The notes beneath the pieces are model-generated. The model was given only the letters and a program-made list of their open reading frames with translations. It had not been told where the DNA came from and made no database searches. Both the position numbers and the translations under genes were made by a program. A stretch of 32,238 nt of DNA. It comes from Nitrospirales bacterium. Its GTDB lineage: Bacteria > Nitrospirota > Nitrospiria > Nitrospirales > UBA8639. The DNA is taken from NCBI GenBank assembly GCA_021604105.1, contig BQIW01000054.1, positions 1-32,238 on the forward strand, read 5' to 3'. Below, one piece after another: positions 7,419 to 24,426 of the stretch. Positions within the stretch are counted from its first letter, which is position 1. Each line of letters begins with the position of its first letter.

Positions 7419-7790
7419 ATGGGTAGTGAACCGGTTCCTTTTAATTATCTCCCCATCATCATCTTCATGGTTCTTGGGACACTCTTTGGAGTTGGGTCAT
7501 TTGTTGTGGGGTGGATTATCCGTCCCAGCCGGCCCTATCGGGCGAAACTGCTTCCTTATGAAAGCGGCGCTCCGTTGTTTATGGACGCGAGGGTTCAGTT
7601 CCCGATGCGCTACTATATTATTGCCATGCTCTTTGTCATTTTTGATATTGAGGTGGTGTTCTTATTTCCGTGGGCGGTGGTGTTTAAAAAACTGGGTCTC
7701 CTGGGTCTCGTTGAAATGGGAGTGTTCCTGGCCATTCTCATTGTGGGATTTTGGTATGCCTGGAAAAAAGGTGCGTTAGATTGGGATTAA
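7419..7790 (+). CDS. nuoA: NADH-quinone oxidoreductase subunit A
   Basis: This 123-residue protein has three membrane helices (about 9-33, 63-84 and 92-113). It carries the family signatures LLPYESG in the first loop and MRYYIIAMLFVIFDIEVVF leading into FPWA. NuoA, with NuoH and NuoJ, forms the membrane part next to the quinone-binding cavity. It is the first nuo gene after the methyltransferase. The ATG at 7419 has a weak TGAGAG upstream. Length and motifs are ordinary. The 117-base gap after it is the longest inside the nuo cluster and contains two inverted repeats. Confidence 0.97.
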   Translation: MGSEPVPFNYLPIIIFMVLGTLFGVGSFVVGWIIRPSRPYRAKLLPYESGAPLFMDARVQFPMRYYIIAMLFVIFDIEVVFLFPWAVVFKKLGLLGLVEMGVFLAILIVGFWYAWKKGALDWD

Positions 7791-7907: not shown

Positions 7908-8387
7908 ATGGGCATGCTTGAACGACAACTTGAACCGAATATTATTACAACCAACCTGGACTATTGTATTGCCTGGTGTCGGAAGTCAGCTCTTTGGCCG
8001 ATGACCTTCGGGTTAGCCTGTTGTGCAATTGAAATGATCGCCTCGGTGTCTTCCAAGTATGACATCGATCGGTTTGGGGCCGGGGTATTTCGTGCATCAC
8101 CGCGTCAGTCTGATTTAATGATTGTGGCTGGGACGGTCTGTCGGAAGATGGCACCGGTGATCCGTCGAATTTATGATCAAATGGCGGAGCCCAGATATGT
8201 GATCTCCATGGGATCCTGCGCGACATCCGGGAATCATTACAATAGTTACAGTGTCGTTCAGGGTGTGGATCAAATTGTCCCTGTGGATGTTTATATCGCA
8301 GGTTGTCCACCAAGACCTGAGGCACTCATGGATGGTCTCATTAAACTCCAAGAAAAAATTCAGAAAGAAAAATACTTCGTGAAATAG
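7908..8387 (+). CDS. nuoB: NADH-quinone oxidoreductase subunit B (N2 cluster)
   Basis: This 159-residue protein is typical for NuoB. It holds the terminal [4Fe-4S] cluster N2, which reduces quinone. The four ligands are visible: tandem C38-C39 in [10 protein letters not shown]104 in MGSCATSG and C133 in AGCPPRP. The [16 protein letters not shown] segment is also conserved. Three further cysteines, C20, C24 and C78, lie in positions that are usually not cysteine in the homologues I know (for example NWARKGS in place of the region around AWCRKSA). The gene is followed by a 59-base gap and then nuoCD. The ATG at 7908 is preceded by CCAGGGTAA, a weak ribosome-binding site. Confidence 0.97.
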
Positions 8388-8446: not shown

Positions 8447-10198
8447 ATGCATGTTTTTCTCGAATCCCTGATTAACCGATTTCCTCAGGCTGTGCTGACG
8501 GCACAGCAGGATCCGGTGCGTCTGGACTTGTGGGCACAGGTACGGGCCGATCATTGGCTGGAAATTGCGCAATTTCTCCATGAGGACCCCGTGATGGCGT
8601 TGGATCATATTACCGATATCTGTTCGGCGGATTATCCTGATGCCCTCGAACGATTTGAAGTCATTTATCACTTTCTCTCCCTTCCGCATCGAACACGCAT
8701 CCGAATTAAAGCGCGGGTGACAGAGGATCATCCGGAGATTGCCTCAATCAGTGGGATCTGGAAAGGGGCGAATTTTCTAGAACGTGAAGTGTACGACTTG
8801 ATGGGCATCCGCTTTAGCGGGCATCCCGACCTTCGTCGAATTTTGATGCCTGATGATTATGATGAAGGGTATCCGCTACGAAAAGATTTTCCGGCCGAAG
8901 GCAAAGGGTGGCGGAGTCGCTTTGAATTTCTTCCCAGGTTGGATGAACCGATCGGCAAATGGTCGGAATCCGAGGTGTCCGATGATCAGCGGCATCAATT
9001 CATGGCGGATGATCATCCAGGTGACACCAAACGTACAACCGAAATGCTGCTCAATATGGGTCCCCAGCATCCCAGTACGCATGGCGTGCTTCGAGTCGTG
9101 TTGGAATTGGATGGTGAGCGGGTCAGCAAGGCCACGCCCGATCTTGGCTACTTGCACCGGGGAGTGGAAAAACTGGCTGAAGGTCTGACGTATATGCAAA
9201 TGGTCCCGCATACCGATCGCTTGGACTATGTCTGTGCCATGACCAATAACTATGCCTATGTGCGGGCTGTGGAAAAACTGATAGATATGACCGTTCCGGA
9301 ACGGGCGGAATATGTGCGGACTATCGTTGCCGAAATGCAACGTATCATTGGCCATTTATTCTGGCTGGGGACACAAGCCCTGGATATCGGGGCGATGACC
9401 GTGTTTTTCTGGACCTTCCGTGAACGTGAAATCTTGTTAGATATGTTTGAGAAATTGTGTGGTGCTCGTCTGACATTGAATTATTATCGGATCGGAGGCG
9501 TGGATGCGGATCTCACGCCGGAAATTATTACGACTCTCCGGGGTTTTTTGAAAACATTTCCTGAACACATTCGGGAATACGACACGCTCCTGCAAAAAAA
9601 TAGAATTTGGGTTGCCCGTACAAAAGGCGTGGCCCTTCTTTCTGCGGAGGATGCCATTAATTTCGGATGCACAGGGCCGGTATTGCGGGGGTCTGGAGTG
9701 TCCTATGATATTCGAAAGTTGGAGCCGTATGGCGTGTATGATCGTGTGAATTGGGAAGTGCCCCTTGGAAAAGACGGGGATACCTATGACCGGTACTGGA
9801 TCCGAATGGAAGAAATGTGGCAGAGCGCTCGTATCATTGAACAATGCCTCAATCAAATGCCTGAGGGACCGGTCATGGCCGTCGATGCTCAAGCCATTCC
9901 TCCTCCAAAACCGGAAGTGATGAGGGATATGCAAAGTCTCATTCATCATTTCATTATCTTTACCCAAGGGTTTAAGCCCCCGAAGGGCGAAACGTATTGT
10001 GCGACGGAGGTTCCTAAAGGTGAATTGGGATTTTTTATCATTAGTGACGGGAGTTCGCGTCCCTATCGGTTGAAAATCCGATCTCCTTCCTTTATTCATA
10101 TGGGCGCTTTTGATCATATGGCGCGTGGATATTTGATTTCGGATATCGTCACGATTTTCGGAACGTACGATATTGTGATGGGGGAGTGTGATCGATAA
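8447..10198 (+). CDS. nuoCD: Fused NADH-quinone oxidoreductase subunits C and D
   Basis: This 583-residue fusion has NuoC in residues 1 to about 190. The 30-kDa signature is EREVYDLMGIRF-SGHP-DLRRILMP. NuoD runs from about residue 200 (MLLNMGPQHPSTHGVLR) to the end (DIVMGECDR). The quinone-site histidine region THGVLR and RLDYV are present. R238 in LHRGVEKL corresponds to the arginine methylated in mitochondrial NDUFS2. The fusion is known in E. coli and several other lineages. Together with NuoB and NuoI it forms the connecting Q module. The linker (about 180-199) is short and charged. The start ATG at 8447 lacks a good Shine-Dalgarno sequence. An 86-base spacer with a small inverted repeat separates it from nuoE. 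Confidence 0.97.
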   Translation: MHVFLESLINRFPQAVLTAQQDPVRLDLWAQVRADHWLEIAQFLHEDPVMALDHITDICSADYPDALERFEVIYHFLSLPHRTRIRIKARVTEDHPEIASISGIWKGANFLEREVYDLMGIRFSGHPDLRRILMPDDYDEGYPLRKDFPAEGKGWRSRFEFLPRLDEPIGKWSESEVSDDQRHQFMADDHPGDTKRTTEMLLNMGPQHPSTHGVLRVVLELDGERVSKATPDLGYLHRGVEKLAEGLTYMQMVPHTDRLDYVCAMTNNYAYVRAVEKLIDMTVPERAEYVRTIVAEMQRIIGHLFWLGTQALDIGAMTVFFWTFREREILLDMFEKLCGARLTLNYYRIGGVDADLTPEIITTLRGFLKTFPEHIREYDTLLQKNRIWVARTKGVALLSAEDAINFGCTGPVLRGSGVSYDIRKLEPYGVYDRVNWEVPLGKDGDTYDRYWIRMEEMWQSARIIEQCLNQMPEGPVMAVDAQAIPPPKPEVMRDMQSLIHHFIIFTQGFKPPKGETYCATEVPKGELGFFIISDGSSRPYRLKIRSPSFIHMGAFDHMARGYLISDIVTIFGTYDIVMGECDR

Positions 10199-10284: not shown

Positions 10285-10809
10285 ATGCTCATTGACCGAT
10301 TCAAAAACGAGGTTGAAGACATTCTCTCCCGCTATCCCGTCAAGCGGTCGGCATTGCTGCCGTTATTGAATTTGGCGCAGCGGGAAGAAGGGTTTGTGAG
10401 TGAATCGGCCATGAAGGAAATTGCCAAAGTTTTGGGTTTGACTCCGGCACAGGTGTTTGAGACCGTCACCTTTTATACCATGTTCAATCTCAAGCCGATC
10501 GGGAAATTTCACCTTCAAGTCTGCAAATCGCTTATGTGCGCGTTGGTCGGATCTGATGAGGTGGTGGTATGGATTCAGAAAAAACTCGGCATTGCACAAG
10601 GTCAGACAACAGCAGATAACCTTTTTACCCTCAGCGTGGTGGAGTGTCTTGGGTCCTGTGGTACAGGTCCCATGATGCAAGTGAATGATGATTATTACGA
10701 GCAATTATCCGAAGAAAAGGTCGGACGTGTTCTGGACGATTTGAAACGAGACGGAACCTGTTCGCTTAAAACAGGACCCTTCATGTATCCTCAGCCCCTG
10801 GCTAAATGA
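10285..10809 (+). CDS. nuoE: NADH-quinone oxidoreductase subunit E ([2Fe-2S] N1a)
   Basis: This 174-residue thioredoxin-like ferredoxin subunit has four cluster ligands in the expected C-x4-C and C-x3-C pairs: C80 and C85 (VCKSLMCALVG) and C121 and C125 (VECLGSCGTGP). The N-terminal helical bundle includes the family motif VFETVTFYTMF. NuoE, with NuoF and NuoG, makes the NADH-oxidising module, so this complex I should use NADH and is not the ferredoxin-only, EFG-less type. The ATG at 10285 follows CACGAGTCTTCT, a weak ribosome-binding site. Spacing to nuoF is 80 bases. Confidence 0.97.
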   Translation: MLIDRFKNEVEDILSRYPVKRSALLPLLNLAQREEGFVSESAMKEIAKVLGLTPAQVFETVTFYTMFNLKPIGKFHLQVCKSLMCALVGSDEVVVWIQKKLGIAQGQTTADNLFTLSVVECLGSCGTGPMMQVNDDYYEQLSEEKVGRVLDDLKRDGTCSLKTGPFMYPQPLAK

Positions 10810-10889: not shown

Positions 10890-12197
10890 ATGGCCACATA
10901 CGAAAAAATCTTATTAAAGAATATGGAGCAACCCGGGTACACCGGTTCGTTGGCCGACTATGAGGGGACCGGTGGGTATCGAGCTCTTCGGACGGTTCTC
11001 AGGGATATGCAACCCGATCAGGTCATTGAGGTGGTGAAAAAGTCAGGCCTCCGCGGTCGTGGGGGAGCCGGGTTTCCCACCGGCGTGAAGTGGGGATTCA
11101 TTCCGAAGAATCATCCTGGTCCGAAATATCTGTGCTGTAACGCGGATGAAAGCGAGCCGGGAACATTTAAAGACCGGCAACTTATGGAACGTGATCCCCA
11201 TCAAATGCTGGAAGGGATGGCCATTACCTGTTTTGCTATCGGCGCACAAACGGCCTACATCTACATTCGGGGAGAATTTCGTCTCGGCGCGAAGATTTTG
11301 GAGCAGGCTCTTCAGGAGGCCTATGCGGCCGGGTATCTGGGCAACAACATTCTCGGGAGCGGGTTGACGATCAATATCTATGTCCACCTTGGTGCCGGAG
11401 CCTACATTTGTGGGGAAGAGACGGCACTTCTCGAATCATTAGAAGGCAAACGGGGCATGCCTCGCTTTAAACCGCCGTTTCCTGCGACGCATGGATTGTA
11501 TCAAAACCCCACTGTGGTGAATAACGTCGAGACAATGGCGAATATTCCTCATATTATCAATCGAGGGGGAGAGTGGTATGCATCGATTGGCTCGCCACCT
11601 AAAAGCTGCGGAACGCGGGTATTTTGTTTAAGCGGACATGTGAAGCGGCCTGGAAATTATGAGACCCCTATGGGCATCACCTTTCGTGAGTTGATTTATG
11701 ATTTGGGCGGGGGTATGCGATCGGATAAGCCCCTCAAGGCCTTTATCCCTGGGGGAGCGTCGGCTCCATTTCTGACGCCTGACCATTTAGATGTGAAAAT
11801 GGATTTTGAGTCAGTGGCTTTGGCGGGGTCTATGCTGGGATCCGGTGGCGTTACGGTGATGGAAGAGGGCACGAATATGGTTTGGGCCGCTCTGCGATTG
11901 ATGGAGTTTTTCTATCATGAATCCTGTGGGAAATGTACACCCTGCCGGGAAGGCACTTCCTGGCTGGTTCAGACTCTTCAGCGAATCTGGAACAAACGAG
12001 GGCGACCTGAAGATGTTGGGGTTCTTGATGAACTCTGCGGAAATATCCCCGGTCGGACGGTCTGTGCGTTTGGTGATGCGGCAGTGTCTCCGATAGTGAG
12101 CACCCTTCTCCACTGGCGGGGGGAGTATGAAGCCCTTATTCGTGAGGCTCAAGAAACGATGCCTCGTAACAAGGAAATTCCGGTTTTCACCCCTTGA
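10890..12197 (+). CDS. nuoF: NADH-quinone oxidoreductase subunit F (FMN, NADH site)
   Basis: This 435-residue flavoprotein oxidises NADH at FMN and passes electrons to cluster N3. The FMN/NADH loop GLRGRGGAGFPTGVKW lies at about residues 53-68, and YLCCNADESEPGTFKDR and GAGAYICGEETAL follow. The N3 [4Fe-4S] ligands are C346, C349 and C352 (SCGKCTPCREG) plus C392 (TVCAFGDAA). Length and motifs are canonical. The TGA stop overlaps a possible TTG start of nuoG (TTGA), which suggests translational coupling if that start is used. Confidence 0.98.
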   Translation: MATYEKILLKNMEQPGYTGSLADYEGTGGYRALRTVLRDMQPDQVIEVVKKSGLRGRGGAGFPTGVKWGFIPKNHPGPKYLCCNADESEPGTFKDRQLMERDPHQMLEGMAITCFAIGAQTAYIYIRGEFRLGAKILEQALQEAYAAGYLGNNILGSGLTINIYVHLGAGAYICGEETALLESLEGKRGMPRFKPPFPATHGLYQNPTVVNNVETMANIPHIINRGGEWYASIGSPPKSCGTRVFCLSGHVKRPGNYETPMGITFRELIYDLGGGMRSDKPLKAFIPGGASAPFLTPDHLDVKMDFESVALAGSMLGSGGVTVMEEGTNMVWAALRLMEFFYHESCGKCTPCREGTSWLVQTLQRIWNKRGRPEDVGVLDELCGNIPGRTVCAFGDAAVSPIVSTLLHWRGEYEALIREAQETMPRNKEIPVFTP

Positions 12198-14899
12198 GTG
12201 TAATCGAAATGGCCATAACTCCAACCACGACTACGGACATGATTACGCTGACGATCGATGGAAAATCGGCGACGGTTGCCAAAGGGACGCTGGTCATTGA
12301 GGCGGCGCGTCAGGTCGGCGTCATGGTGCCGCACTTTTGCTATCACCCGAAACTGACGCCTGACGCCAATTGCCGGATGTGTTTAGTGGAAATTGAAAAA
12401 ATGCCCCGGTTGCAAACCTCCTGTAGTACGCAAGTGGCGGAAGGTATGGTCGTGAAATCGGCTTCTTCCTCGGTGGTGCAGGACGCCCGCAAATCGGTGT
12501 TGGATTTTATTTTGGCTAATCACCCGTTGGATTGTCCCGTCTGCGATCAAGGTGGGCGGTGTGACCTTCAGGACTTTTCCCATGAATATACCGCGACGAC
12601 CAGCGGATTTAAGGAACTCAAACGGGTCTTTCCGAAGGAGTATTTCAGCCCGCTGATTGAAACGCAGATGAACCGGTGTGTCCAATGTTTGCGATGCGTA
12701 CGCTATTGTGACCAGGTCATGGATGTGAAAGCCCTGGCGCCTATGGGACGCGGCACCATGACGGAAATTAAAGCCTTCGGGGCCCATGAACTGGATTGTG
12801 AGTTTTGTGGTGGATGTATCCAGATTTGTCCGGTGGGAGCCATTACCAGTCGAGTCTCTATGTATGAATTTCGTCCATGGATGCTCAAGCGGACGGAGTC
12901 CGTTTGTGGCTATTGTGGGGATGGGTGTCAAATTACCTTTCAAACGAAGAATAATGATTTAATCGAAGTGAATTCCACTCACGGGGCCGGCCGCAATAAT
13001 GGTGATCTCTGTGCCCGAGGCTACTTTGGCTACCATGTCAGTGTTCATCCCGATCGGCTGACGTCGCCCCTTATCCGTCGAGGGGAAGCCTTTCAACCTG
13101 TGCAATGGGAAGAGGCTTTGGAGTTGGTAGGGCAACGTTTATTGGAAATAAAAACCAAGTACGGTCCCGATGCGATTGGCGGGTTAATTACGGGAAGATG
13201 TACGAATGAAGATATCTATATTTTTCAGAAATTCATGCGTGGCGTGGTAGGGACCAATCGGATTGATAGCAGTGTGCGATATGGCCACCTGAATGCGATG
13301 CATGCCATGCAACGAGTGCAAGGCACTCATCGTTGGGCGGTGAACTTTGACGATATTCTTTCCGCAGATACTCTCTTGCTTATCGGAACCAATATTACGG
13401 AAACCAATCCGATTACAGGGCTGAAGGTCAAAGAAGCGGTGAAGCGGCGAGGGGCGAAGCTCATCACCATTGAAGCGTTAGAGCCTGCAATCGGGAGCAT
13501 CAGCAATATTGTGAATCTGGCCCACCATCATCTGGGCGTTAAGCCGACCGCCTATGCGGGGGCGGTTTTGGGCATGCTGAAAGCTGTGGTTGATCAGCAA
13601 ATGGTGGATCCGGATATTCAAATAACCGCCCAGTCTTATGCTCACGACATAACCGCCGTTTTGACATCCCTGTCCTGGGATGCGATTCAAGCGCAAACCG
13701 GACTGGCTTCGGATGTGTTTATTCAGGCCGCCCAGGTGTTTGCCAAAGGACAGAAGGTCGTTATTCTTGTCGGACCGGGAGTCCTGCGATCGGTGGGTGG
13801 ATTCGGAATGACCATGAATTTGTTGGATCTGTTATTGGTCACGGGGAAACTTACCAAGCCCGGCTGTGGCCTTGCTCCCTTGGCGGAAGAAAATAATGAT
13901 CAAGGAGCTTTTGAGATGGGGGGAACCGGGTCGATATTGCCTGGTGGACAATCCCTGGGTGACCCGGACGTGCGGAAACGCCTGGCGCAAGCGTGGGGTC
14001 GGCCAATTCCCGATACACCAGGCTCTTCACTCCCCCAGATGATTGAAGATGCACAACACGGCAAACTCAAAGCCTTGTTTGTGGTTGGTGAAAATCCCCT
14101 GGCCTCCCTGCCGCCGTCATCGGGTATTCATTCGGCATTGGAGAAGCTTGAGTTTCTGGTGTGTCAGGAATTGTTTCTCACCGAAACGGCCCAGCAAGCT
14201 CATGTCATTCTGCCAGCCTGTTCCTATGCTGAAAAGGACGGAACGTTTACCAACACGGAAGGGCATATTCAGTCGGTACGAAAAGCCATTGATCTGGTTG
14301 GGGAAAGCCGACCGGACTGGGAAGTGTTTTCCGCACTGTCGGTCATGATGAATGATCCGATGGAATATGGAGACGTCAAGGACATTGGCAAAGAGATCCA
14401 TAATCTTCTCCCCGGTACCCGTACCTTGGGTCCTGCCCCCTTTCCCACACAACCGGATTCGACGGTCATCGCCCGATACCTTAAGACTGATTATCAGCGG
14501 GATATCGCTACACGGTATCAATTGCCGGTAGAGGATGCCGTTGCTGGTGCGGAAGACATGATCATGCAGGTCTCACAATCCCTGTTTCATTCCGGGAAAT
14601 TTTCCCGAAAAGCCAAAGGCTTACTGCAAGTCGAACCAGCCGGCAAAATCCATTTGCATCCGGAAGACGCCGCTCGACGTGGCATTGGTGAAGGGGACAT
14701 CGTGAAGGTGAGTAATCGTTTGGGTGAGGTGATCATCCCGGTCGGGCTTCGTGAGCGCATCCCGCGAGGGGTCGTGATGTTTCCCGAGCATTTTGATGAA
14801 GAGGTGCGCCGTCTCTTGCCGTATCGTGTTGATTCGGAAACGCAGGTGCCCTATTGCAAGGTGGGTCGGGTTCGGGTTGAAAAGATGGTGGGAACATGA
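12194..14899 (+). CDS. nuoG: NADH-quinone oxidoreductase subunit G, formate-dehydrogenase-like
   Basis: This is 901 residues from a TTG at 12194; ATG starts at 12209 or 12239 (MITLTIDGK) are equally possible and none has a clear ribosome-binding site. Cluster ligands (numbered from the TTG): N1b C49, C60, C63, C77; N5 H110, C114, C117, C123; N4-type motif C162, C165, C168; N7 C238, C241, C245, C273. Unusually there is a second full ferredoxin motif, C202-x2-C205-x2-C208-x3-C212-P, paired with C172, as in NAD-dependent formate dehydrogenases and iron-only hydrogenases; the E. coli and Thermus NuoG lack it. A molybdopterin-oxidoreductase fold follows, including a C-terminal dinucleotide-binding-like domain. 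The usual Cys/Sec metal-ligand position reads Gly (SSVRYGHLNA), so formate oxidation is not expected. Electron transfer within the NADH module is the likely role. Confidence 0.95.
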   Translation: MSVIEMAITPTTTTDMITLTIDGKSATVAKGTLVIEAARQVGVMVPHFCYHPKLTPDANCRMCLVEIEKMPRLQTSCSTQVAEGMVVKSASSSVVQDARKSVLDFILANHPLDCPVCDQGGRCDLQDFSHEYTATTSGFKELKRVFPKEYFSPLIETQMNRCVQCLRCVRYCDQVMDVKALAPMGRGTMTEIKAFGAHELDCEFCGGCIQICPVGAITSRVSMYEFRPWMLKRTESVCGYCGDGCQITFQTKNNDLIEVNSTHGAGRNNGDLCARGYFGYHVSVHPDRLTSPLIRRGEAFQPVQWEEALELVGQRLLEIKTKYGPDAIGGLITGRCTNEDIYIFQKFMRGVVGTNRIDSSVRYGHLNAMHAMQRVQGTHRWAVNFDDILSADTLLLIGTNITETNPITGLKVKEAVKRRGAKLITIEALEPAIGSISNIVNLAHHHLGVKPTAYAGAVLGMLKAVVDQQMVDPDIQITAQSYAHDITAVLTSLSWDAIQAQTGLASDVFIQAAQVFAKGQKVVILVGPGVLRSVGGFGMTMNLLDLLLVTGKLTKPGCGLAPLAEENNDQGAFEMGGTGSILPGGQSLGDPDVRKRLAQAWGRPIPDTPGSSLPQMIEDAQHGKLKALFVVGENPLASLPPSSGIHSALEKLEFLVCQELFLTETAQQAHVILPACSYAEKDGTFTNTEGHIQSVRKAIDLVGESRPDWEVFSALSVMMNDPMEYGDVKDIGKEIHNLLPGTRTLGPAPFPTQPDSTVIARYLKTDYQRDIATRYQLPVEDAVAGAEDMIMQVSQSLFHSGKFSRKAKGLLQVEPAGKIHLHPEDAARRGIGEGDIVKVSNRLGEVIIPVGLRERIPRGVVMFPEHFDEEVRRLLPYRVDSETQVPYCKVGRVRVEKMVGT

Positions 14900-14950
14900 G
14901 GCGGTTCTCAGCATGTGGGTCGGTATATAGAGGAGAGGAGTGAATCCGGC

Positions 14951-16012
14951 ATGGATATGGGAATTCGATTAGCCTTAACGTTAACCCAAATTGGTGTGGT
15001 GATGGTGGCAGTGCTTCTGACCGTCGCAGTACTCACTCTCCTGGAGCGAAAGGTATTGGGTTGGATGCAGGATCGGATGGGACCAATGGAAGTCGGGCCT
15101 TATGGCATTCTGCAACCGGTCGCGGACGGGTTAAAGCTCTTTTTTAAAGAAGATATCATTCCGGCCGGAGCGAATAAGTTCATGTTTAGCATGGCGCCGG
15201 TGTTGTCATTAGTTCCTGCCCTCATCGGATTCGCGGTGATTCCGTTTGGCCCGGATTGGACGGTGGATGTTGGCGGCGTCAACTTTAAACCCTTTGTGAT
15301 TACCGACATCAATATCGGCGTTCTCTATATCCTGGCGTTTGCTTCAATCGGTGCATACGGCATTATCTTGGGCGGGTGGTCATCAAACAGTAAGTATTCC
15401 CTTCTGGGAGGCCTGCGGTCTGCGGCCCAGTTGATTAGTTACGAATTGAATGTGGGGCTTTCAATTGTCGGCGTGTTGCTCCTTTCAAGCTCTCTGAGTC
15501 TCGTGACGATTACCAATGCACAAGCAGGAGGATTTTGGAACTGGTACTTTTTCGGGGGAGGGGGGTTCCCTCAAGCCGTGGCGTTCATCGTGTTTATTAT
15601 TTCTGCGGTCGCGGAAACAAATCGAACTCCGTTTGATTTGCCCGAAGCGGAAAGTGAATTGGTCGCCGGGTTCTTTACGGAATATAGCGGCATGCGATTC
15701 GCCTTCTTTTTTCTGGCCGAATACGGCAATATGATTTTGGTGTCTTGCATGGCGACTGTCTTGTTTTTCGGCGGATGGTACGCTCCCTTTGAGTTTTTAC
15801 AAGGTCCGGAATCCATCCATTGGTTGACGGGTATATTTTGGTTTGTATTGAAAGTTTCGAGTTTCTTGTTTTTATTCTTTTGGTTACGTGCCACGTTACC
15901 GCGATTACGATATGACCAGCTCATGCGGTTCGGGTGGAAGGTCCTCCTTCCCATTGCGTTGGCTAATATTGTGTTGACGTCGATCGTTGCATTTCTCTTC
16001 CCTGGGAACTAA
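14951..16012 (+). CDS. nuoH: NADH-quinone oxidoreductase subunit H
   Basis: This 353-residue membrane protein has eight or nine helices and forms the quinone-entry channel and link to the proton-pumping arm. The invariant segment [14 protein letters not shown] and [21 protein letters not shown] are present, as are [30 protein letters not shown] and TEYSGMRF. I chose the ATG at 14951 because AGGAGAGGAG (14931-14940) lies ten bases upstream; a GTG at 14915 in frame would add 12 residues that do not look like NuoH. It starts 51 bases after nuoG. Confidence 0.96.
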
Positions 16013-16026
16013 GAAGGTTGAATGGT

Positions 16027-16566
16027 ATGAAAATCAAGGAGTGGGTCAAAACGCTTCTATTTTATGAGATTGCGTTAGGGATGAAGGCCACCTTATCCCA
16101 TTTCCTTCGTTATAAGCCAATTACCGTACAATACCCGCATGAGAAGAAACAGTTGCCGTCCAATTATCGCGGCATGCTGGCCTTACTGCGCTATGATGAT
16201 GGAACGGAAAAGTGTGTGGGATGTGATTTATGTGAGGCGGCTTGCCCCTCACGAGTCATCCGCGTGGTGAGTGCCGAGGTGCCGGGGGAACCTACGAAGC
16301 GGTATTCCAAGGAATATTATATGGACATGACCCGCTGCTTGTTTTGCGGATTGTGCGTGAAGGCATGTCCGGTTGATGCGTTGGGCATGACTCAGGAGTA
16401 TGAATGGGCGGTGTATGATAAGCGGCAGCTTCAATTAAATAAGGAACAGCTTCTGGCTATTGGTGATCGCAACTTTCCAGTTCGGGAAAAGCGACTCGAA
16501 TTTCAACACCCCAATGTGGCCTATTTTAACGTAGGGTTTAAAGAGATTCCTCAAAAAGAACTGTAG
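16027..16566 (+). CDS. nuoI: NADH-quinone oxidoreductase subunit I (clusters N6a, N6b)
   Basis: This 179-residue 8Fe ferredoxin-type subunit bridges NuoG and NuoB. Two CxxCxxCxxxCP motifs are seen: C63, C66, C69, C73 (CVGCDLCEAACP) and C104, C107, C110, C114 (CLFCGLCVKACP). The N-terminal amphipathic helix (KEWVKTLLFYEIALGMKATL) sits on the membrane arm. The ATG at 16027 is favoured over a TTG at 16018 because AAGAAGG (16011-16017) is nine bases upstream. It follows nuoH by 14 bases. Confidence 0.97.
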   Translation: MKIKEWVKTLLFYEIALGMKATLSHFLRYKPITVQYPHEKKQLPSNYRGMLALLRYDDGTEKCVGCDLCEAACPSRVIRVVSAEVPGEPTKRYSKEYYMDMTRCLFCGLCVKACPVDALGMTQEYEWAVYDKRQLQLNKEQLLAIGDRNFPVREKRLEFQHPNVAYFNVGFKEIPQKEL

Positions 16567-16640
16567 CCGTATTGTCTGGCGATGCACTCGGTCCATATGC
16601 CGGCCAAGGAATATCGCCAAAATTATTGAACGAACCGGTG

Positions 16641-17162
16641 ATGGAAACGATTGTTTTTTTCTATTTTGCCAGTGTGATTGTGGTCACGGCCGCTCTCGTC
16701 GTGGGCCTGAGAAGCCCGGTATTTAGTGCCCTAGCCCTCCTGGTCATGTTCTTCCACGTTGCGGGGCTCTTTGTCACGTTGCATGCGGAATTCCTGGCGG
16801 TGATTCAAATCCTGGTGTATGCGGGTGCCATTCTGGTGCTTTATCTTTTTGTGGTGATGTTACTCAATTTGAAGGGTGAGGTCCGTTTTCATCACCAATT
16901 GACCGTAGGCCTCTTTCTGGGATGTATGGTCTTTGCAGAGGCGGTTCTGTTGGTGGTGAAAGGTGACACGTCGTCCTTGGGGCAAAATTTTTCCCCTTCC
17001 AGGGAGCCCGCTCAGCTGATGCAGGGCAATACGGAATCGATCGGGGAGCTTCTGTATTCCACGTATCTGTTCCCATTTGAAATTGCGTCTCTCATTCTCT
17101 TAGTGGCGATGGTGGGTGCGGTCATCCTCACGAAAAAAGGGATACTGGAGGCCAAAAGTTAA
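16641..17162 (+). CDS. nuoJ: NADH-quinone oxidoreductase subunit J
   Basis: This 173-residue protein has five hydrophobic helices. The family segment [21 protein letters not shown] contains the pi-bulge helix (YAGAI) involved in coupling. It starts METIVFFYF, as NuoJ proteins do, so the ATG at 16641 is preferred over a TTG at 16572 that would add 23 atypical residues; no clear ribosome-binding site decides this. The stop codon overlaps the nuoK start (TAATG), which suggests translational coupling. The periplasmic loop after helix 4 (about residues 108-137) is longer and more polar than in short NuoJ forms. Confidence 0.95.
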
Positions 17163-17467
17163 TGGACGTTCCGGTGAGCTATTATCTGATACTGAGCGGT
17201 ATCGTATTCTCAATCGGGTTGGTGGGAGTGCTCATTCGACGCAATATCATCATCATTCTGTTATCAATTGAATTGATGTTGAATGCCACAAATATTAATT
17301 TTGTGGCCTTCTCTTCCTATTTGGGTAATCTTTCCGGGCAGGTGTTCGTGTTTTTTGCGCTTACCGTGGCTGCGGCGGAGGTTGCGGTGGGGCTGGCGAT
17401 TATCATCGCACTCTATCGGCATTCGGCCAGTACCAACATTGACGACTTCCGGTTGCTGAAATGGTAA
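17162..17467 (+). CDS. nuoK: NADH-quinone oxidoreductase subunit K
   Basis: This 101-residue protein with three helices is a MrpC-like proton-channel subunit. The two membrane glutamates essential for pumping are present: E37 in [12 protein letters not shown] and E73 in [12 protein letters not shown]. The ATG shares one base with the nuoJ stop, and nuoL begins four bases after its own stop. It is ordinary in length and sequence. Confidence 0.97.
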
Positions 17468-17471
17468 GGCG

Positions 17472-19373
17472 ATGCTCTACGCCTTAATCCCTCTCCTCCC
17501 ACTCCTGGCCTTTGTCATCCTTGGGCTGTTCGGCCATTGGATCAAAGACCGAAGCCATTGGGTGGCCGTGCCTGCCGTCCTAGGGTCGTTCCTTCTTTCC
17601 ATCATGGCGCTTGCCGACGTGGCGAGTGGTCAGGCGCTGCAGATTCCTCTTTATACGTGGGCCGATTCGGGAAACCTTCATATTGCCTTAGGGTTATTCA
17701 TCGATCAGCTTACGGTCGCGATGTTGTTGCTTGTCACCATTGTAAGTTCGTTGGTCCATGTCTATACGATCGGCTACATGCATGGAGAGCCGGGTTACGC
17801 CAGGTTTTTTAGCAATATCGCGCTCTTTACCTTTTCCATGTTGATGTTGGTGATGTCCGATAATTTCCTTCAACTGTTTGTCTTTTGGGAAGCCGTGGGT
17901 CTTTGCTCCTACCTGTTAATCGGTCACTGGTATGAACGCGAGTCAGCCAGGGCAGCGGCCACCAAAGCGTTTCTGGTGAATCGAGTCGGAGATTTCGGGT
18001 TCATGTTGGGAATTCTGCTGGTCTTTGTCACCTTCGGCAGTTTGCACTATCAGGAGGTGTTTTCTCAGTTGGACCAAAAGTCTGGTGACCTGGTGAATCT
18101 TCTTGGTTCTGTCGGAGGACATTGGGAAATATCGGTGATGACCTTGATCTGCCTTTTGTTATTCGTTGGGGCGGTCGGAAAATCTGCCCAAGTGCCTCTG
18201 CATGTGTGGTTGCCGGATGCAATGGAAGGTCCCACTCCGATATCAGCCCTCATTCATGCCGCGACGATGGTGACGGCAGGAGTCTTTATGGTTGCTAGAT
18301 TAGCTCCGGTATTTAACCTATCCCCTGTGGCCATGGATGTGGTGGCAGTGGTGGGTGGAGCCACCATGTTTATTGGCGCGACCATTGCCTTGACGCAAAC
18401 CGATATCAAACGGGTTGTGGCCTACTCCACACTCAGTCAACTGGGCTATATGATGATGGCTTGTGGGTTGGGTGGCTATATTGCCGGAATGTATCACCTT
18501 CTGACCCACGGAGCATTTAAGGCCTTGTTATTCCTCGGGTGTGGATCGGTGATTATTGCTCTTCATCATGAACAAGATATGAAACATATGGGTGGACTCA
18601 AGGATAAGCTGCCTGTGACCTATTGGACTTTTCTCATTGGGGCTCTGGCATTGTCCGGATTTCCTCTCACGGCGGGATATTTCAGTAAAGATGAATTACT
18701 TCTGGCGGCCTGGATGTCCAGTGGCCTGGGGAAAGTTCTGGCCGTCCTGGGATTGCTGACGGCTCTCATGACAGCTTTTTACAGCTTTCGGTTAGTGTTC
18801 GTGACATTTTGGGGAGAATCACGAGTGGATCCTCAGCATGCCAAGCATGTGCATGAACCGTCAAAAGCGATGACGTTTCCTCTTCTGATTCTTGCCGTCC
18901 TGAGTATTCTCGCAGGATATATCGGAATTCCGGAATTTTTGGCCCCCGCATTTCCTGCATCCGGGAGTGGTGGAGGTCATCATGAAGGATCTGCGGCCAT
19001 GGGCATTATGCTGACGGCCACCTTAATGGGTTTGCTAGGGATTACCGGGGCCTATTGGGTCTATGTCAAGTCGCCAGACTTGCCGGACCGTTTGGCGAGT
19101 CAGTGGCGATCGCTATATCAGTTTTCCTTGAATAAATGGTTTGTGGATGAGGCCTATGACCGGACCGTGGTCATGCCAACATTGAATCTGGCGGATCGGT
19201 TATGGAAACGGGTGGATATTGCGGTGATTGATGGTGCGGTCAATGGAGTGGCGCGAGCCGTGGCCTGGGGAGGATGGGTGACGCGAAGACTTCAAAGCGG
19301 ACAAGCACAGAATTATGCGCTGGCCATGACTGTCGGGGCGGCGGTTATTTTAGGTGCGATGCTCTTTTATTAG
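17472..19373 (+). CDS. nuoL: NADH-quinone oxidoreductase subunit L
   Basis: This 633-residue antiporter-like subunit sits at the distal end of the membrane arm. The key ion-pair residues are E140 (VFWEAVGLCSYLLIG) and K237 (VGKSAQVPLHVWLPDA), and the family motif GPTPISALIHAATMVTAGV follows. About fourteen core helices are followed by a Gly/His-rich loop (SGSGGGHHEG) and the C-terminal lateral helix region ending in a last transmembrane helix, so the piston-like arm is intact. ATG at 17472 with TAAGGCG upstream. Confidence 0.97.
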   Translation: MLYALIPLLPLLAFVILGLFGHWIKDRSHWVAVPAVLGSFLLSIMALADVASGQALQIPLYTWADSGNLHIALGLFIDQLTVAMLLLVTIVSSLVHVYTIGYMHGEPGYARFFSNIALFTFSMLMLVMSDNFLQLFVFWEAVGLCSYLLIGHWYERESARAAATKAFLVNRVGDFGFMLGILLVFVTFGSLHYQEVFSQLDQKSGDLVNLLGSVGGHWEISVMTLICLLLFVGAVGKSAQVPLHVWLPDAMEGPTPISALIHAATMVTAGVFMVARLAPVFNLSPVAMDVVAVVGGATMFIGATIALTQTDIKRVVAYSTLSQLGYMMMACGLGGYIAGMYHLLTHGAFKALLFLGCGSVIIALHHEQDMKHMGGLKDKLPVTYWTFLIGALALSGFPLTAGYFSKDELLLAAWMSSGLGKVLAVLGLLTALMTAFYSFRLVFVTFWGESRVDPQHAKHVHEPSKAMTFPLLILAVLSILAGYIGIPEFLAPAFPASGSGGGHHEGSAAMGIMLTATLMGLLGITGAYWVYVKSPDLPDRLASQWRSLYQFSLNKWFVDEAYDRTVVMPTLNLADRLWKRVDIAVIDGAVNGVARAVAWGGWVTRRLQSGQAQNYALAMTVGAAVILGAMLFY

Positions 19374-19427: not shown

Positions 19428-21032
19428 ATGGCAGGAGATCTTTCAATCGTGACTGAGATGGTCATTCCCACAGGGGGGATTCCCTGGCTCACGATCGTAC
19501 TGATCCTCCCGCTGCTCGGAGTGGTCGCGGTCTTGCTCGCTCATGAGGCACTTTCACGGGCTATTGCGTTGACGGTCTCCATCCTGACCTTGCTGGTCTC
19601 ATTGCCTCTGTGGGTTGCGTTCGACAATGCGCATGCCGGCATGCAATTTGTGGAAAAGCATCTTTGGATCAATTCCCCCGCGATTCATTATTCCCTGGGT
19701 GTGGATGGGATCAGCATGCCGCTTGTCCTCTTAACCACTTTTCTCACTCCCCTGTGTATCCTCGTCTCCTGGACCTCGGTTCAAACCAGAATGAAAGAAT
19801 TCCTGATCAGTCTGTTGGTGATGGAGACCGCGACGATCGGCGTGTTTGCGGCTTTGGATTTTGTGCTGTTTTATGTGTTTTGGGAAACCATGCTGATTCC
19901 CATGTATCTCCTGATTGGCGTCTGGGGTGGGCCGAACCGGGTCTATGCGGCGATCAAGTTTTTCCTGTATACCCTGGCCGGGAGTATCCTGCTGCTGGTC
20001 GCGATTCTGGTGCTGTTTTTTGAAGGTGGGCGAACCTTTGATATCTTGGCTTTAACGCACGCGTCCTATGCCCCAGGGTTGCAATCCCTCTTGTTCTGGG
20101 CCTTCTTTGCCGCGTTTGCGGTGAAAGTCCCCATGTTTCCCTTTCATACGTGGCTCCCGGACGCCCACGTGGAGGCACCTACTGCCGGGAGCATCATTCT
20201 CGCAAGTGTCCTGCTCAAGATGGGAACCTATGGATTTTTACGCTTTTCATTGCCCATGTTGCCTGATGCCTCGGTTGCGTATACCCCGTTCATCATGACC
20301 CTGTCGGTCATCGCCATTATTTATGGCGCCTATATGGCATTAGCGCAAGCGGACCTCAAGAAACTTATTGCCTATTCCAGTGTCAGTCATATGGGGTTTG
20401 TCACCCTGGGGATATTTGCGTTAAATGCCCAGGGAATTGAAGGGGCGATCCTTCAGATGATCAACCATGGCATTACGACCGGCGCTCTCTTTATGTGTGT
20501 GGGCATTATTTACGAACGGACCCATAGCCGGCAAATTACGGATAATGGCGGGTTGGCGAACGCGATGCCAAAATACGCGACATTTTTTGTGATTTTTGCG
20601 TTGTCGTCGGTTGGCCTTCCAGGCATGAACAGTTTTGTCGGAGAATTTTTAGTCCTGATTGGGACTTTTGCCTGGAGCAAACTGACAGGGACGCTGGCGG
20701 CTTTAGGAATTATTTTGGCTGCCGTCTATATTTTATATTTGGTGCAACGGATGATCTATGGGCCAGCCTCTCCGCAGATGCTTCCCAAATTAACTGATTT
20801 GAATGTTCGTGAATTCGGCATGCTGGTTCCGTTGGTGGTGTTGGTGTTTTGGATCGGTCTCCATCCGAAACCGTTGCTGGATGTGATGCATGCAAGCGTG
20901 GCGCGGGTCATCGCGTCCCAATCCACCCCGGTCATGGTTCAGCAGGGAGGGGATGGCCGTGGTCACACCCTGGCGATGACGGCCGAGCCATCCGGGGATC
21001 GGCTCATCATGAAGGGTGTTGTCGCCCCATGA
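19428..21032 (+). CDS. nuoM: NADH-quinone oxidoreductase subunit M
   Basis: Up to 534 residues. This is an antiporter-like proton-pumping subunit with about 14 helices. E153 (YVFWETMLIPMYLLIG) and K233 (FAVKVPMFPFHTWLPDAH) are the conserved pumping residues (numbered from 19428). The downstream motifs EAPTAGSIILASVLLKMG and SVSHMGFV are present. The ATG at 19428 has no ribosome-binding site, whereas AGGAGA (19433-19438) is ten bases before a GTG at 19449, which may be the true start (seven residues shorter). The stop overlaps the nuoN start (ATGA). Only one nuoM is present, so this locus does not encode the two-NuoM variant. Confidence 0.96.
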   Translation: MAGDLSIVTEMVIPTGGIPWLTIVLILPLLGVVAVLLAHEALSRAIALTVSILTLLVSLPLWVAFDNAHAGMQFVEKHLWINSPAIHYSLGVDGISMPLVLLTTFLTPLCILVSWTSVQTRMKEFLISLLVMETATIGVFAALDFVLFYVFWETMLIPMYLLIGVWGGPNRVYAAIKFFLYTLAGSILLLVAILVLFFEGGRTFDILALTHASYAPGLQSLLFWAFFAAFAVKVPMFPFHTWLPDAHVEAPTAGSIILASVLLKMGTYGFLRFSLPMLPDASVAYTPFIMTLSVIAIIYGAYMALAQADLKKLIAYSSVSHMGFVTLGIFALNAQGIEGAILQMINHGITTGALFMCVGIIYERTHSRQITDNGGLANAMPKYATFFVIFALSSVGLPGMNSFVGEFLVLIGTFAWSKLTGTLAALGIILAAVYILYLVQRMIYGPASPQMLPKLTDLNVREFGMLVPLVVLVFWIGLHPKPLLDVMHASVARVIASQSTPVMVQQGGDGRGHTLAMTAEPSGDRLIMKGVVAP

Positions 21033-22510
21033 CGCTTCCTCTCGCCGATCTTGTGCTCATTCTTCCCGAATTGCTCATCGTAGGTATGGCGTGTCTGATT
21101 CTCGTTCTCGATCCCATTACCCCTGCACACAAAAAAGATCTCCTGGCGTGGATGAGTCTCGGCATTCTCCTTGTCGGGAGCGTGGTGACGGTAAGCGGAT
21201 TTGGTGAGCGGGTGATGGCCTTTAGTGATTTAGTGGTCGTGGATTCGTATGCCGTATTTTGGAAAATGTTGCTGTACCTTGTGAGTGGTCTGACCATTTT
21301 ATTGTCAATGGGGTACCTCCAGGAGGAAAAGATCCAGCTCGCGGAATACTATGCATTTGTTCTCTTGGCATTGACCGGAATGATGGTGATGGTATCGGGG
21401 GCTGATTTGCTCACGATCTATCTGGGGATCGAATTGATGTCGATTACCCTCTATATTATGGCCGGGTTCAAGCGATTTGAGCGGCGTTCAATCGAATCTT
21501 CGGCTAAATATTTTGTGTTGGGGGCCTTTTCCTCAGGAATTTTGCTCTATGGGATTTCGATTATTTTCGGAGTCACCGGAAGTACAAGGCTTGTGGAAAT
21601 TGCCGCCGTGGTCAATGGGCGTGGGATTGATGATCCGTTAGTGTTTATTTCGCTCATGCTGCTGATTGTGGGATTTGGATTTAAAGTGGCGGCAGTACCC
21701 TTTCATATGTGGACGCCTGATGTGTATGAAGGGGCTCCGACGTCCGTGACGGCGTTTATGGCGGTGGCCTCAAAGGCGGCCAGCTTTGCCGCGTTCCTTC
21801 GTGTTCTTCTGGAAGCCTTCGGTGGAATTAAGCCCGACTGGAATCTGTTGATCCTGGTCATGTGTATTATCACGGTGGCCCTTGGCAACCTTGTGGCCAT
21901 TGTTCAGACCAATGTGAAACGGATGCTGGCCTATTCCAGTATTGCCCATGCGGGTTATGCGTTGATTGGGGTTGTGGTCGCCGGGTGGGGTGGCACAGGG
22001 GCGGCAGTTTCGTCTCAGGGCGTTTCGAGCCTGATGCTCTATCTGGCCATTTATTCGTTTATGACGATAGGGGCATTTTCCATGGTGGCCATTTTGCGGA
22101 AGGGTGGTCTGGAAGGTGAGGAGATAGAAGATTTTACCGGATTGGCCAAGCGACATAAGGGTGGGGCATTTCTCATGTTGGTGTTTATGGTGTCGTTGGC
22201 AGGTATTCCTCCTACTGCCGGGTTCATTGGGAAATTGTATCTTTTCATGGCCGCGGTCAATGCGGGGTTGGCATGGCTGGCAATCATTGGATTGATCTTT
22301 GCCGCCATATCAGCTTTTTTCTATTTGCGCATCGTTATGGTGATGTATATGCGTGAGCCATCCTCCGAACAGGACTTGCATACCCGTCTGGTTCTTTCTC
22401 CCCAGGTATCGTTTGTCCTGGCTTGCGCGGTTGCCGGAGTGGTTTTACTCGGCATTTTTCCAGGTCCGCTGGTCTCGGTGGCAGACCTTTCCTCTCTCCC
22501 TCTTCAATAA
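21029..22510 (+). CDS. nuoN: NADH-quinone oxidoreductase subunit N
   Basis: This 493-residue antiporter-like subunit is the last gene of the cluster. The conserved charged residues are E135 (YLGIELMSITLYIM) and K219 (GFGFKVAAVPFHMWTPDVYEG). APTSVTAFMAVASK and AYSSIAHAGY are typical. I start it at the ATG overlapping the nuoM stop (ATGA). A longer in-frame opening from 20849 would add 60 Arg/Pro-rich residues that are only the out-of-frame reading of nuoM. It converges on the minus-strand transporter gene 55 bases away. Confidence 0.97.
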   Translation: MTLPLADLVLILPELLIVGMACLILVLDPITPAHKKDLLAWMSLGILLVGSVVTVSGFGERVMAFSDLVVVDSYAVFWKMLLYLVSGLTILLSMGYLQEEKIQLAEYYAFVLLALTGMMVMVSGADLLTIYLGIELMSITLYIMAGFKRFERRSIESSAKYFVLGAFSSGILLYGISIIFGVTGSTRLVEIAAVVNGRGIDDPLVFISLMLLIVGFGFKVAAVPFHMWTPDVYEGAPTSVTAFMAVASKAASFAAFLRVLLEAFGGIKPDWNLLILVMCIITVALGNLVAIVQTNVKRMLAYSSIAHAGYALIGVVVAGWGGTGAAVSSQGVSSLMLYLAIYSFMTIGAFSMVAILRKGGLEGEEIEDFTGLAKRHKGGAFLMLVFMVSLAGIPPTAGFIGKLYLFMAAVNAGLAWLAIIGLIFAAISAFFYLRIVMVMYMREPSSEQDLHTRLVLSPQVSFVLACAVAGVVLLGIFPGPLVSVADLSSLPLQ

Positions 22511-23640: not shown

Positions 23641-24426
23641 TTAGGAAGCCAGAGGAGTTGGACAGTGCTGGAGGACTTCCTGGAGAGCCGCATACAGTTG
23701 ACCGAATGTGGCAGATGAGGAGCTTTGAAGCGGTTGTGAGGGAAGAGAGCAGGTGGCACCACGTGACAGCAGATAGTGGGTCAGATCCCGTTGGCCGGAA
23801 AGGGCGGCAGAATGGAGGGGCGTGATGCCAATGGTATTGGTGGCATCGATTGGCGCGCCGGAGTCCAGCAGGAGGCGAGTCATGTCGGTATCTCCAGTTT
23901 GTGCGGCAACGTGCAGCGCAGTCCAGCCTTCCTTAAATGAGGATTGGACCGTTGCGCCGTGAGCTAACAGAAAAGCTGCCATCCGTCGGTGATGTTCTTG
24001 CACGGCAATGTGAAGTGGTGTGATGTTTCCTTTAAAACCATCCACCGGCGCACCGTGTTGAAGGAGGAGGTCGGCGATATCCACATGTCCCCCTTTCGCG
24101 GCGAAATGGAGAGGCGTCCATTCGGACTGATAAATCGCCTCAGGGTCCGCTCCTTTTTGTAACAGAAGACGAGTCATCGTAAATTGCCCGGATCTTGCAG
24201 AAAAATGAAGAGGCGTCGCTCCCTGTCTGGTGCGCTGATTGACATCGGATCCTTGGACGACCAGCTTCTGAACCAGGGGTACGTTGCGATTTTGGATGGC
24301 TTGAATCAGATCTGGATCTTGGGAGAAGAAGATGGTGTTCCACTCTGAAGCTAATGCATAGGAAAAAAAAATGCCAATACATACCACCAGATATTTGACC
24401 ATGGTGAATTCACGTGATTGGGGCAT
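23641..24426 (-). CDS. Exported ankyrin-repeat protein
   Basis: Up to 261 residues. An N-terminal signal-peptide-like segment (VKYLVVCIGIFFSYALAS) is followed by about six ankyrin repeats with the standard TPLHxAA...G...LL..GA pattern: GATPLHFSARSGQ, WTPLHFAAKGGH, ITPLHIAVQEHH, WTALHVAAQTGD and ITPLHSAALSGQ. The C-terminus is short and Ser-rich with two Cys. Ankyrin arrays bind proteins; no enzyme domain is seen. The ATG at 24402 (residue 9) would give a cleaner signal peptide, but neither start has a convincing ribosome-binding site. It is flanked by 196- and 555-base gaps, so it is probably a single gene. Confidence 0.85.
   Translation of the reverse strand: MPQSREFTMVKYLVVCIGIFFSYALASEWNTIFFSQDPDLIQAIQNRNVPLVQKLVVQGSDVNQRTRQGATPLHFSARSGQFTMTRLLLQKGADPEAIYQSEWTPLHFAAKGGHVDIADLLLQHGAPVDGFKGNITPLHIAVQEHHRRMAAFLLAHGATVQSSFKEGWTALHVAAQTGDTDMTRLLLDSGAPIDATNTIGITPLHSAALSGQRDLTHYLLSRGATCSLPSQPLQSSSSATFGQLYAALQEVLQHCPTPLAS

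What the first reader, a model, noticed from the sequence alone, without database searches (positions are those of the whole stretch)
12194..14899. NuoG has an extra ferredoxin-type 4Fe-4S motif and formate-dehydrogenase style
In addition to the N1b, N5, N4 and N7 motifs, the protein has C202-C205-C208-C212 paired with C172, giving a two-cluster ferredoxin domain like NAD-dependent formate dehydrogenases. Its molybdopterin domain keeps formate-dehydrogenase-like phrases (HPDRLTSPLI, SGKFSRKAKGL), but the catalytic Cys/Sec position is Gly. It may be a recent recruit from a formate dehydrogenase, with one more electron carrier, possibly an entry or exit point for ferredoxin.
Basis: partly seen in the sequence, partly recalled or inferred. 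Interest (0 to 1): 0.55.

Follow-up and report, generated by a model that had tools for sequence, protein, structure and literature searches.

The report
Complex I subunit keeping ancestral iron-sulfur cluster
A relative of nitrite-oxidizing bacteria carries a respiratory complex I whose NuoG subunit still has an extra iron-sulfur cluster site, inherited from the common ancestor with formate dehydrogenases rather than newly borrowed, and already predicted in complex I of a few other bacteria.

Summary
The window holds a nuo operon (nuoCD fused, nuoE and nuoF intact) from an inferred Nitrospirales genome. NuoG has the N1b, N5, N4 and N7 ligands plus C172/C202/C205/C208, a second [4Fe-4S] site. 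It matches formate dehydrogenase FdsA over nearly its full length; there the cluster A2 links the chain to the N7 equivalent. The catalytic Cys/Sec is Gly364 and the catalytic Arg is Ala564. By the ferredoxin pattern C212 belongs to N4, not to the extra site.

The "recent recruit" reading fails. In 185 aligned relatives the four ligands come and go together (143 all, 41 none, 1 exception). On a hydrogenase-rooted tree, catalytic formate dehydrogenases lie outside the complex I NuoGs, and canonical NuoG, which lacks the site, nests among forms that have it; grouping this NuoG with FDH is rejected (AU p 0.006). The site is ancestral, lost in canonical NuoG, and known in kind (predicted for Campylobacter, Helicobacter and Aquifex; described for Nitrospina NuoG2).

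Most likely role: a short, mainly structural cluster branch. A ferredoxin port is possible but has no direct evidence. Both structure models failed over the cluster domain.

The parts
12194..14899 (+). nuoG, 901 aa, long FdsA-like form with extra [4Fe-4S] site
   Evidence: TIGR01973 477.3 bits, cutoff 470.05
12338..12424 (+). N1b [2Fe-2S] ligands C49/C60/C63/C77
12521..12562 (+). N5 ligands H110/C114/C117/C123 (NADH-G_4Fe-4S_3)
12677..12709 (+). first half of the dicluster ferredoxin domain: C162/C165/C168 (N4) and C172 (extra cluster)
12797..12829 (+). second half: C202/C205/C208 (extra cluster, equivalent of FdsA A2) and C212 (N4)
12905..13012 (+). N7 ligands C238/C241/C245/C273 (equivalent of FdsA cluster A1)
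13049..14878 (+). FDH-like molybdopterin domain without the catalytic Cys/Sec and Arg
13283..13285 (+). Gly364 in place of the Cys/Sec Mo ligand
   Evidence: invariant in the 50 NuoGs
13883..13885 (+). Ala564 in place of the FDH catalytic Arg (R. capsulatus Arg587)
   Evidence: Arg in 0 of 27 rows of the clade
10890..12197 (+). nuoF, with FMN domain and 4Fe-4S (N3) region
10285..10809 (+). nuoE, thioredoxin-like [2Fe-2S] (N1a)
8447..10198 (+). nuoCD fusion
7908..8387 (+). nuoB (N2)
7419..7790 (+). probable nuoA, by position only
   Evidence: no family search run
14915..16012 (+). nuoH
16018..16566 (+). nuoI (N6a, N6b)
16572..17162 (+). nuoJ
   Evidence: best E 7e-42, below every model's curated cutoff
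17162..17467 (+). probable nuoK, by position only
   Evidence: no family search run
17472..19373 (+). nuoL
19428..21032 (+). nuoM (single copy)
20849..22510 (+). nuoN ORF; homology starts about 60 residues in, so the real start is further downstream

Best explanation
This is the NuoG subunit of an NADH-linked complex I that kept the ancestral FdsA-like architecture. Besides N1b, N5, N4 and N7 it binds a fifth cluster, the equivalent of FdsA cluster A2, through C172/C202/C205/C208. That cluster sits between N4 and N7, so N7, which is electrically isolated in Thermus complex I, becomes wired to the main chain. The old bis-MGD site has lost its metal ligand and catalytic Arg, so the branch ends blind. 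Electrons still enter or leave by NADH at NuoF; the A2-N7 branch mainly stabilises the NuoEFG module and may hold an electron. Shown: sequence, operon, phylogeny, ligand co-conservation, loss of the catalytic Cys/Sec and Arg. Inferred: cluster occupancy, distances, the structural role.
For: Ligand co-variation: of 185 rows, 143 have all four extra ligands, 41 none, 1 (L170) only C172. Match to FdsA 6tg9 over residues 10-895, E 5e-130. In FdsA, A2 couples A1 (= N7) to the chain (PMC7171172 passages). Tree: complex I NuoGs in one 75-row clade (94/88, not starred; it also holds L165, seen only beside nuoF), canonical NuoG inside a 68-row clade with forms that have the site (99/95), one change of state. 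Catalytic Cys/Sec 0/27 and Arg 0/27. Constraint: in the window clade residues 101-230 are 72% identical on average and 421-720 46%; in FDHs 47% and 53% (plain pairwise means). NuoE, NuoF, NuoI and NuoB keep Cys patterns for their clusters (assignment recalled). Precedents: in StnC two side-branch clusters of a dead FdhF domain are called a remnant for electron transfer, yet their Cys are needed for tetramer formation (PMC10482914 section 8; that they correspond to A2 and N7 is my inference); in E. coli N7 serves stability, not activity (PMC5123574 passages).
Against: No usable model of the cluster domain: pLDDT under 50 in both predictions, so ligand geometry rests on homology. The Mo domain is not simply decaying: FDH-invariant columns stay more conserved in the window clade than the other columns (0.75 against 0.56; 0.73 against 0.53 in the other extra-cluster NuoG group, 0.54 against 0.46 in canonical NuoG), with four newly fixed residues G364, N405, L639, G690. 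The catalytic His is still present in the window (H365) and in 46 of 61 loci. A purely structural role does not explain why canonical NuoG could lose the cluster.
Confidence: 0.6

Rival explanations
1. Second electron port: the extra cluster and N7 form a working side branch through which ferredoxin (or another carrier docking on the altered Mo domain) is reduced during reverse electron flow, to feed the reductive TCA cycle.
For: The extra cluster would connect N7 to the chain as in FdsA. The genome has three matches above the cutoff of PF01855, a domain of 2-oxoacid:ferredoxin oxidoreductases, and one below it. FDH-invariant columns of the Mo domain stay conserved with a fixed new signature (not mapped onto the pocket except G364). 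Lucker et al. proposed ferredoxin reduction for Nitrospina NUO-2, whose NuoG2 has one additional [4Fe-4S] cluster (PMC3578206 passages).
Against: NuoE and NuoF are intact, so an NADH port exists. The same genome has a 2M complex I (two NuoM) with no nuoE or nuoF found beside it, the form for which ferredoxin reduction was proposed in Nitrospira (PMC6606698 passages). No other Fer4 or Fer2 gene was found on this contig: Fer4 matches are in nuoI and nuoG only, Fer2 has none. The site is also kept in a Sinorhizobium nuo operon (L117). StnC precedent says remnant.
Confidence: 0.2
2. Recent recruit: the NuoG gene, or its C-terminal part, was taken from a formate dehydrogenase.
For: Best solved-structure and fold matches are FDH alpha subunits; TIGR01591 462 bits against TIGR01973 477.
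Against: N-terminal tree, AU p 0.006 and Mo-domain tree place it with other NuoGs, apart from catalytic FDHs; its 27-row clade (100/100) shares the form throughout.
Confidence: 0.05
3. The motif is an unoccupied relic: the cysteines are present but hold no cluster.
For: No structural test was possible.
Against: All four ligands are invariant in the 50 NuoGs and, where lost elsewhere, are lost together in 41 of 42 rows, which a relic would not do.
Confidence: 0.07

Closest known systems
FdsA, alpha subunit of NAD-dependent formate dehydrogenase (R. capsulatus, 6tg9/6tga)
   Same: Same order of N1b, N5, N4, extra (A2) and N7 (A1) ligands and same overall domains; NuoE/NuoF-like partner subunits
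   Different: Catalytic Cys386 and Arg587 are Gly and Ala here; part of a complex I operon; FdsA-type rows lie apart on both trees
[quoted passage not shown]
   Same: Complex I NuoG with a predicted extra cluster at the A2 position
   Different: Sequences not compared here. The atypical complex of epsilon-proteobacteria is thought to take electrons from ferredoxin or flavodoxin (PMC11238625 passage); here nuoE and nuoF are intact
Nitrospina NuoG2 and the Kuenenia homologue (PMC3578206)
   Same: N1b, N4, N5, N7 plus one additional [4Fe-4S]
   Different: There NuoF2 is said to lack the FMN site and carry extra clusters; here NuoF is canonical. Sequences not compared here
NuoG of the 2M complex I in the same genome (C80, L006)
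   Same: Same ligand set, Gly at the Mo position, 39-40% identity
   Different: No nuoE or nuoF found beside it, two NuoM subunits
StnC, NuoG-like domain of the Stn transhydrogenase
   Same: Catalytically inactive FdhF domain with two side-branch clusters
   Different: Soluble bifurcating enzyme with a GltD domain

Membership tests
NuoG of respiratory complex I | encoded inside a nuo operon with nuoB,CD,E,F,H,I,J,L,M,N | tested here: met
   (nuoA and nuoK by position only)
NuoG of respiratory complex I | N1b, N5, N4 ligands and TIGR01973 above cutoff | tested here: met
   477.3 against 470.05 bits; ligands
NuoG of respiratory complex I | falls with complex I NuoGs on a tree | tested here: met
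   75-row clade 94/88 (unstarred; includes L165); window clade 27 rows 100/100
NAD-dependent formate dehydrogenase (FdsA/FdhA) | Cys/Sec Mo ligand and catalytic Arg | tested here: not met
   Gly364, Ala564; 0 of 27 in the clade. The neighbouring catalytic His is present (H365)
NAD-dependent formate dehydrogenase (FdsA/FdhA) | TIGR01591 equivalog cutoff 666.25 | tested here: not met
   462.4 bits
NAD-dependent formate dehydrogenase (FdsA/FdhA) | one clade with catalytic FDHs | tested here: not met
   AU p 0.006 against the 12-row FDH clade
A2-type extra cluster | CxxCxxCxxxC twice, with a Cys at 172 | tested here: met
A2-type extra cluster | cluster bound, within transfer distance of N4 and N7 | not testable with these tools
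   models fail in this region
2M complex I | two NuoM subunits, no nuoE/F/H in operon | tested here: not met
   one nuoM, and nuoE, F, H present in the window
[FeFe] hydrogenase HydA | H-cluster domain after the ferredoxin domain | tested here: not met
   the hydrogenase models listed match only about residues 16-225

The most novel reading that the evidence does not exclude
In Nitrospiria the NADH-linked complex I has a working three-way junction: the A2-equivalent cluster wires N7 to the chain, and the altered but conserved Mo domain (fixed G364, N405, L639, G690) is a docking or exit site for a low-potential carrier, so one complex can send reverse-flow electrons to NAD+ or to ferredoxin.
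Probability: 0.12. Interest if true: 0.75.

Novelty: new member of a known kind. Interest (0 to 1): 0.3.

Why it matters
It indicates, with a tested tree, that the extra cluster is an ancestral feature shared with formate dehydrogenase and hydrogenase and lost on the canonical NuoG line, and that Nitrospirota hold several stages of NuoG side by side (catalytic FDH with selenocysteine, dead FDH domain with extra cluster, canonical without it). That makes the question of how NuoG lost its enzyme activity, and what N7 is for, testable in one phylum. How nitrite oxidizers make reduced ferredoxin is an open question that this protein could touch.

Tried and rejected
Full-length AlphaFold model: good Mo domain but pLDDT under 50 over 101-268; a second model of residues 1-290 was no better (mean 50.3). 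So there is no cluster geometry, and I ran no fold search on the second model. The Foldseek matches carry rmsd 15-17 A for the five top FDH chains because of that region, and weigh little beyond the Mo domain.

Recent recruitment rejected by trees. Weak points of the trees: FDHs do not form one clade on the N-terminal tree (two groups, with a ~675-residue NuoG-like group between them; node 90/22); the sister place of canonical NuoG to the window clade is 81/71; the 75-row clade is unstarred; the AU groups were chosen after the tree had been seen; the second AU test (canonical NuoG branching off first with HydA) is only p 0.03. The 110 tree rows were picked by hand from 185, almost all Nitrospirota; other phyla enter only through plasmid records and two Sumerlaeota rows (L128, L133). 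The Mo-domain tree is a quick tree of 67 hand-thinned rows without canonical NuoG, the short forms and HydA; one FDH-like row with Cys (L203) branches next to the NuoG group there.

Rows dropped before the 185: ORFs under 550 aa, matches under 100 bits, matches starting after query residue 60, and repeats of the same last 300 residues. Of the 78 loci, 61 were counted; L086 is in the set as L128, and several others as their whole-genome copies. L203 was left out of the FDH set; L159, L160 and L127 were left out of the 27-row clade because the tree puts them elsewhere. Group names inside my scripts that look like class names were guesses. FDH-invariant columns were not mapped onto the bis-MGD pocket. 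Whether the four Cys could bind zinc instead was not tested. Chadwick et al. 2018 could not be read; Smith 2000 and Efremov and Sazanov 2012 are known to me here only as cited by PMC7171172. Full-text searches: 9, 19, 44, 47, 48, 62, 63, 80, 100; in their listings I saw no paper on this cluster in Nitrospira's NADH-linked NuoG, but the library is partial and I opened only seven papers.

Full report
What is there. The window is contig C54 of an unnamed 4.9 Mb assembly. Its relatives are Nitrospirota, mostly labelled Nitrospirales or Nitrospira; the nearest named one is 97% identical in NuoG (Nitrospiria bacterium Co_bin.365). The window holds a nuo operon: probable nuoA, then nuoB, nuoCD (fused), nuoE, nuoF, nuoG, nuoH, nuoI, nuoJ, probable nuoK, nuoL, nuoM, nuoN (A and K by position only). 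NuoE, NuoF, NuoI and NuoB keep Cys patterns for N1a, N3, N6a/N6b and N2 (assignments recalled). With NuoG this gives ten expected clusters.

The observation. NuoG (12194-14899) has the ligands of N1b, N5, N4 and N7 and a complete second ferredoxin half. All eight ferredoxin Cys align with FdsA of R. capsulatus. The FDH-like Mo domain is confirmed by Pfam, by matches to FdsA over residues 9-896 (9wxb and 6tg9, E 3e-133 and 5e-130; the best NuoG, 8e9g, 6e-91) and by Foldseek.

Is it more than chance? Of 185 aligned NuoG, FdhA, HydA and related proteins, 143 have C172 and the three motif Cys, 41 have none of the four, and 1 (L170) has C172 alone. The 37 canonical NuoGs have Tyr at 172 and NSL, SSL or SAL at the motif. 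In 50 Nitrospirota NuoGs all ligands and Gly364 are invariant. This tight coupling is the best sequence evidence that the four residues bind one cluster.

Origin. A tree of the N-terminal region (110 hand-picked rows, 265 columns, the four trait columns removed, rooted on two HydA-type rows) puts the formate dehydrogenases outside in two groups, then most of the NuoG-like proteins seen beside nuoE and nuoF alone, then the complex I NuoGs (75 rows, 94/88). The canonical NuoGs lie inside a 68-row clade with forms that have the site (99/95). The state changes once. Forcing the window's 27-row clade with the 12-row FDH clade is rejected (AU p 0.006), and so is canonical NuoG branching off first with HydA (p 0.03). 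A quick tree of the Mo domain (67 rows, canonical NuoG left out) puts the complex I NuoGs and L165 on one 43-row branch (96), apart from the catalytic FDHs. So the site is ancestral and was lost on the canonical line. Limits: nearly all rows are Nitrospirota, the groups were named after the tree was seen, and the sister of canonical NuoG is weakly supported (81/71).

Mo domain. The Cys/Sec ligand is kept in 0 of 27 and the catalytic Arg (R. capsulatus Arg587) in 0 of 27 rows of the clade; the adjacent His is kept here (H365) but variable (46 H, 7 Q, 6 Y, 1 A, 1 gap of 61). FDH activity is therefore very unlikely. 62% of FDH-invariant columns are kept on average, against 34% in canonical NuoG. 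Constraint is higher in the cluster domain (72% mean identity over 101-230, 46% over 421-720; FDHs 47% and 53%). Still, FDH-invariant columns remain more conserved than the rest in the clade (0.75 against 0.56) with four newly fixed residues, so the domain is not free to drift.

Function. In FdsA, cluster A2 couples A1 (equivalent to N7) to the chain, while in Thermus complex I N7 is disconnected and regarded as a remnant; the same paper says an A2-like cluster was predicted from sequence in complex I of C. jejuni, H. pylori and A. aeolicus but not resolved (PMC7171172, passages). By homology the window's NuoG has N7 wired in. What the branch does is open. In StnC, a NuoG-like protein with an inactive FdhF domain, the side-branch clusters are called a remnant for electron transfer, yet Cys exchanges stop tetramer formation and their exact role is left open (PMC10482914, section 8). 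In E. coli N7 is needed for stability, not activity, and NuoG is said to carry three to five clusters (PMC5123574, passages). I therefore favour a mainly structural branch that may store an electron.

The ferredoxin port has circumstantial support only: the genome has three PF01855 matches above cutoff, and a ferredoxin role was proposed for Nitrospina NUO-2, whose NuoG2 has one additional [4Fe-4S] (PMC3578206, passages). But NuoF and NuoE are intact here; on this contig Fer4 matches fall only in nuoI and nuoG, and Fer2 has none. The genome also has a 2M complex I on C80 with two NuoM (533.0 and 418.2 bits, cutoff 263.8) and no nuoE or nuoF found beside it, the form proposed for ferredoxin in Nitrospira (PMC6606698, passages); its NuoG has the same site.

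Verdict. A real feature, known in kind; the claim of recent recruitment fails. Structure prediction could not test the cluster.

Noticed in passing
G000:C80 (L006 1540-15148): Second complex I of the 2M type in the same genome (two NuoM above cutoff; no nuoE/F found), with its own long NuoG carrying the same extra site.
   Followed up: partly
G000:C13:12820-14352 (L213 1450-3102): Stand-alone NuoF-like gene (43% identical) directly followed by a small Fer2 ferredoxin gene (PF00111, 49.5 bits), like the nuoF-ferredoxin cluster reported in N. moscoviensis.
   Followed up: partly
   Followed up: partly
L164, L166, L170, L182, L126: Short NuoG-like proteins (637-736 aa), four of the five beside nuoCD and nuoI (L126: nuoF and nuoI seen), that lost the extra motif (SST) and are sister to canonical NuoG on the tree; L170 still has C172.
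   Followed up: no
L117, L118: Plasmid-borne nuo operon of Sinorhizobium medicae (and nuo genes of Ensifer adhaerens) has the same extra-cluster NuoG, with Ser at the Mo-ligand position.
   Followed up: no
window 23641-24426 (-): Ankyrin-repeat protein downstream of the nuo operon.
   Followed up: no
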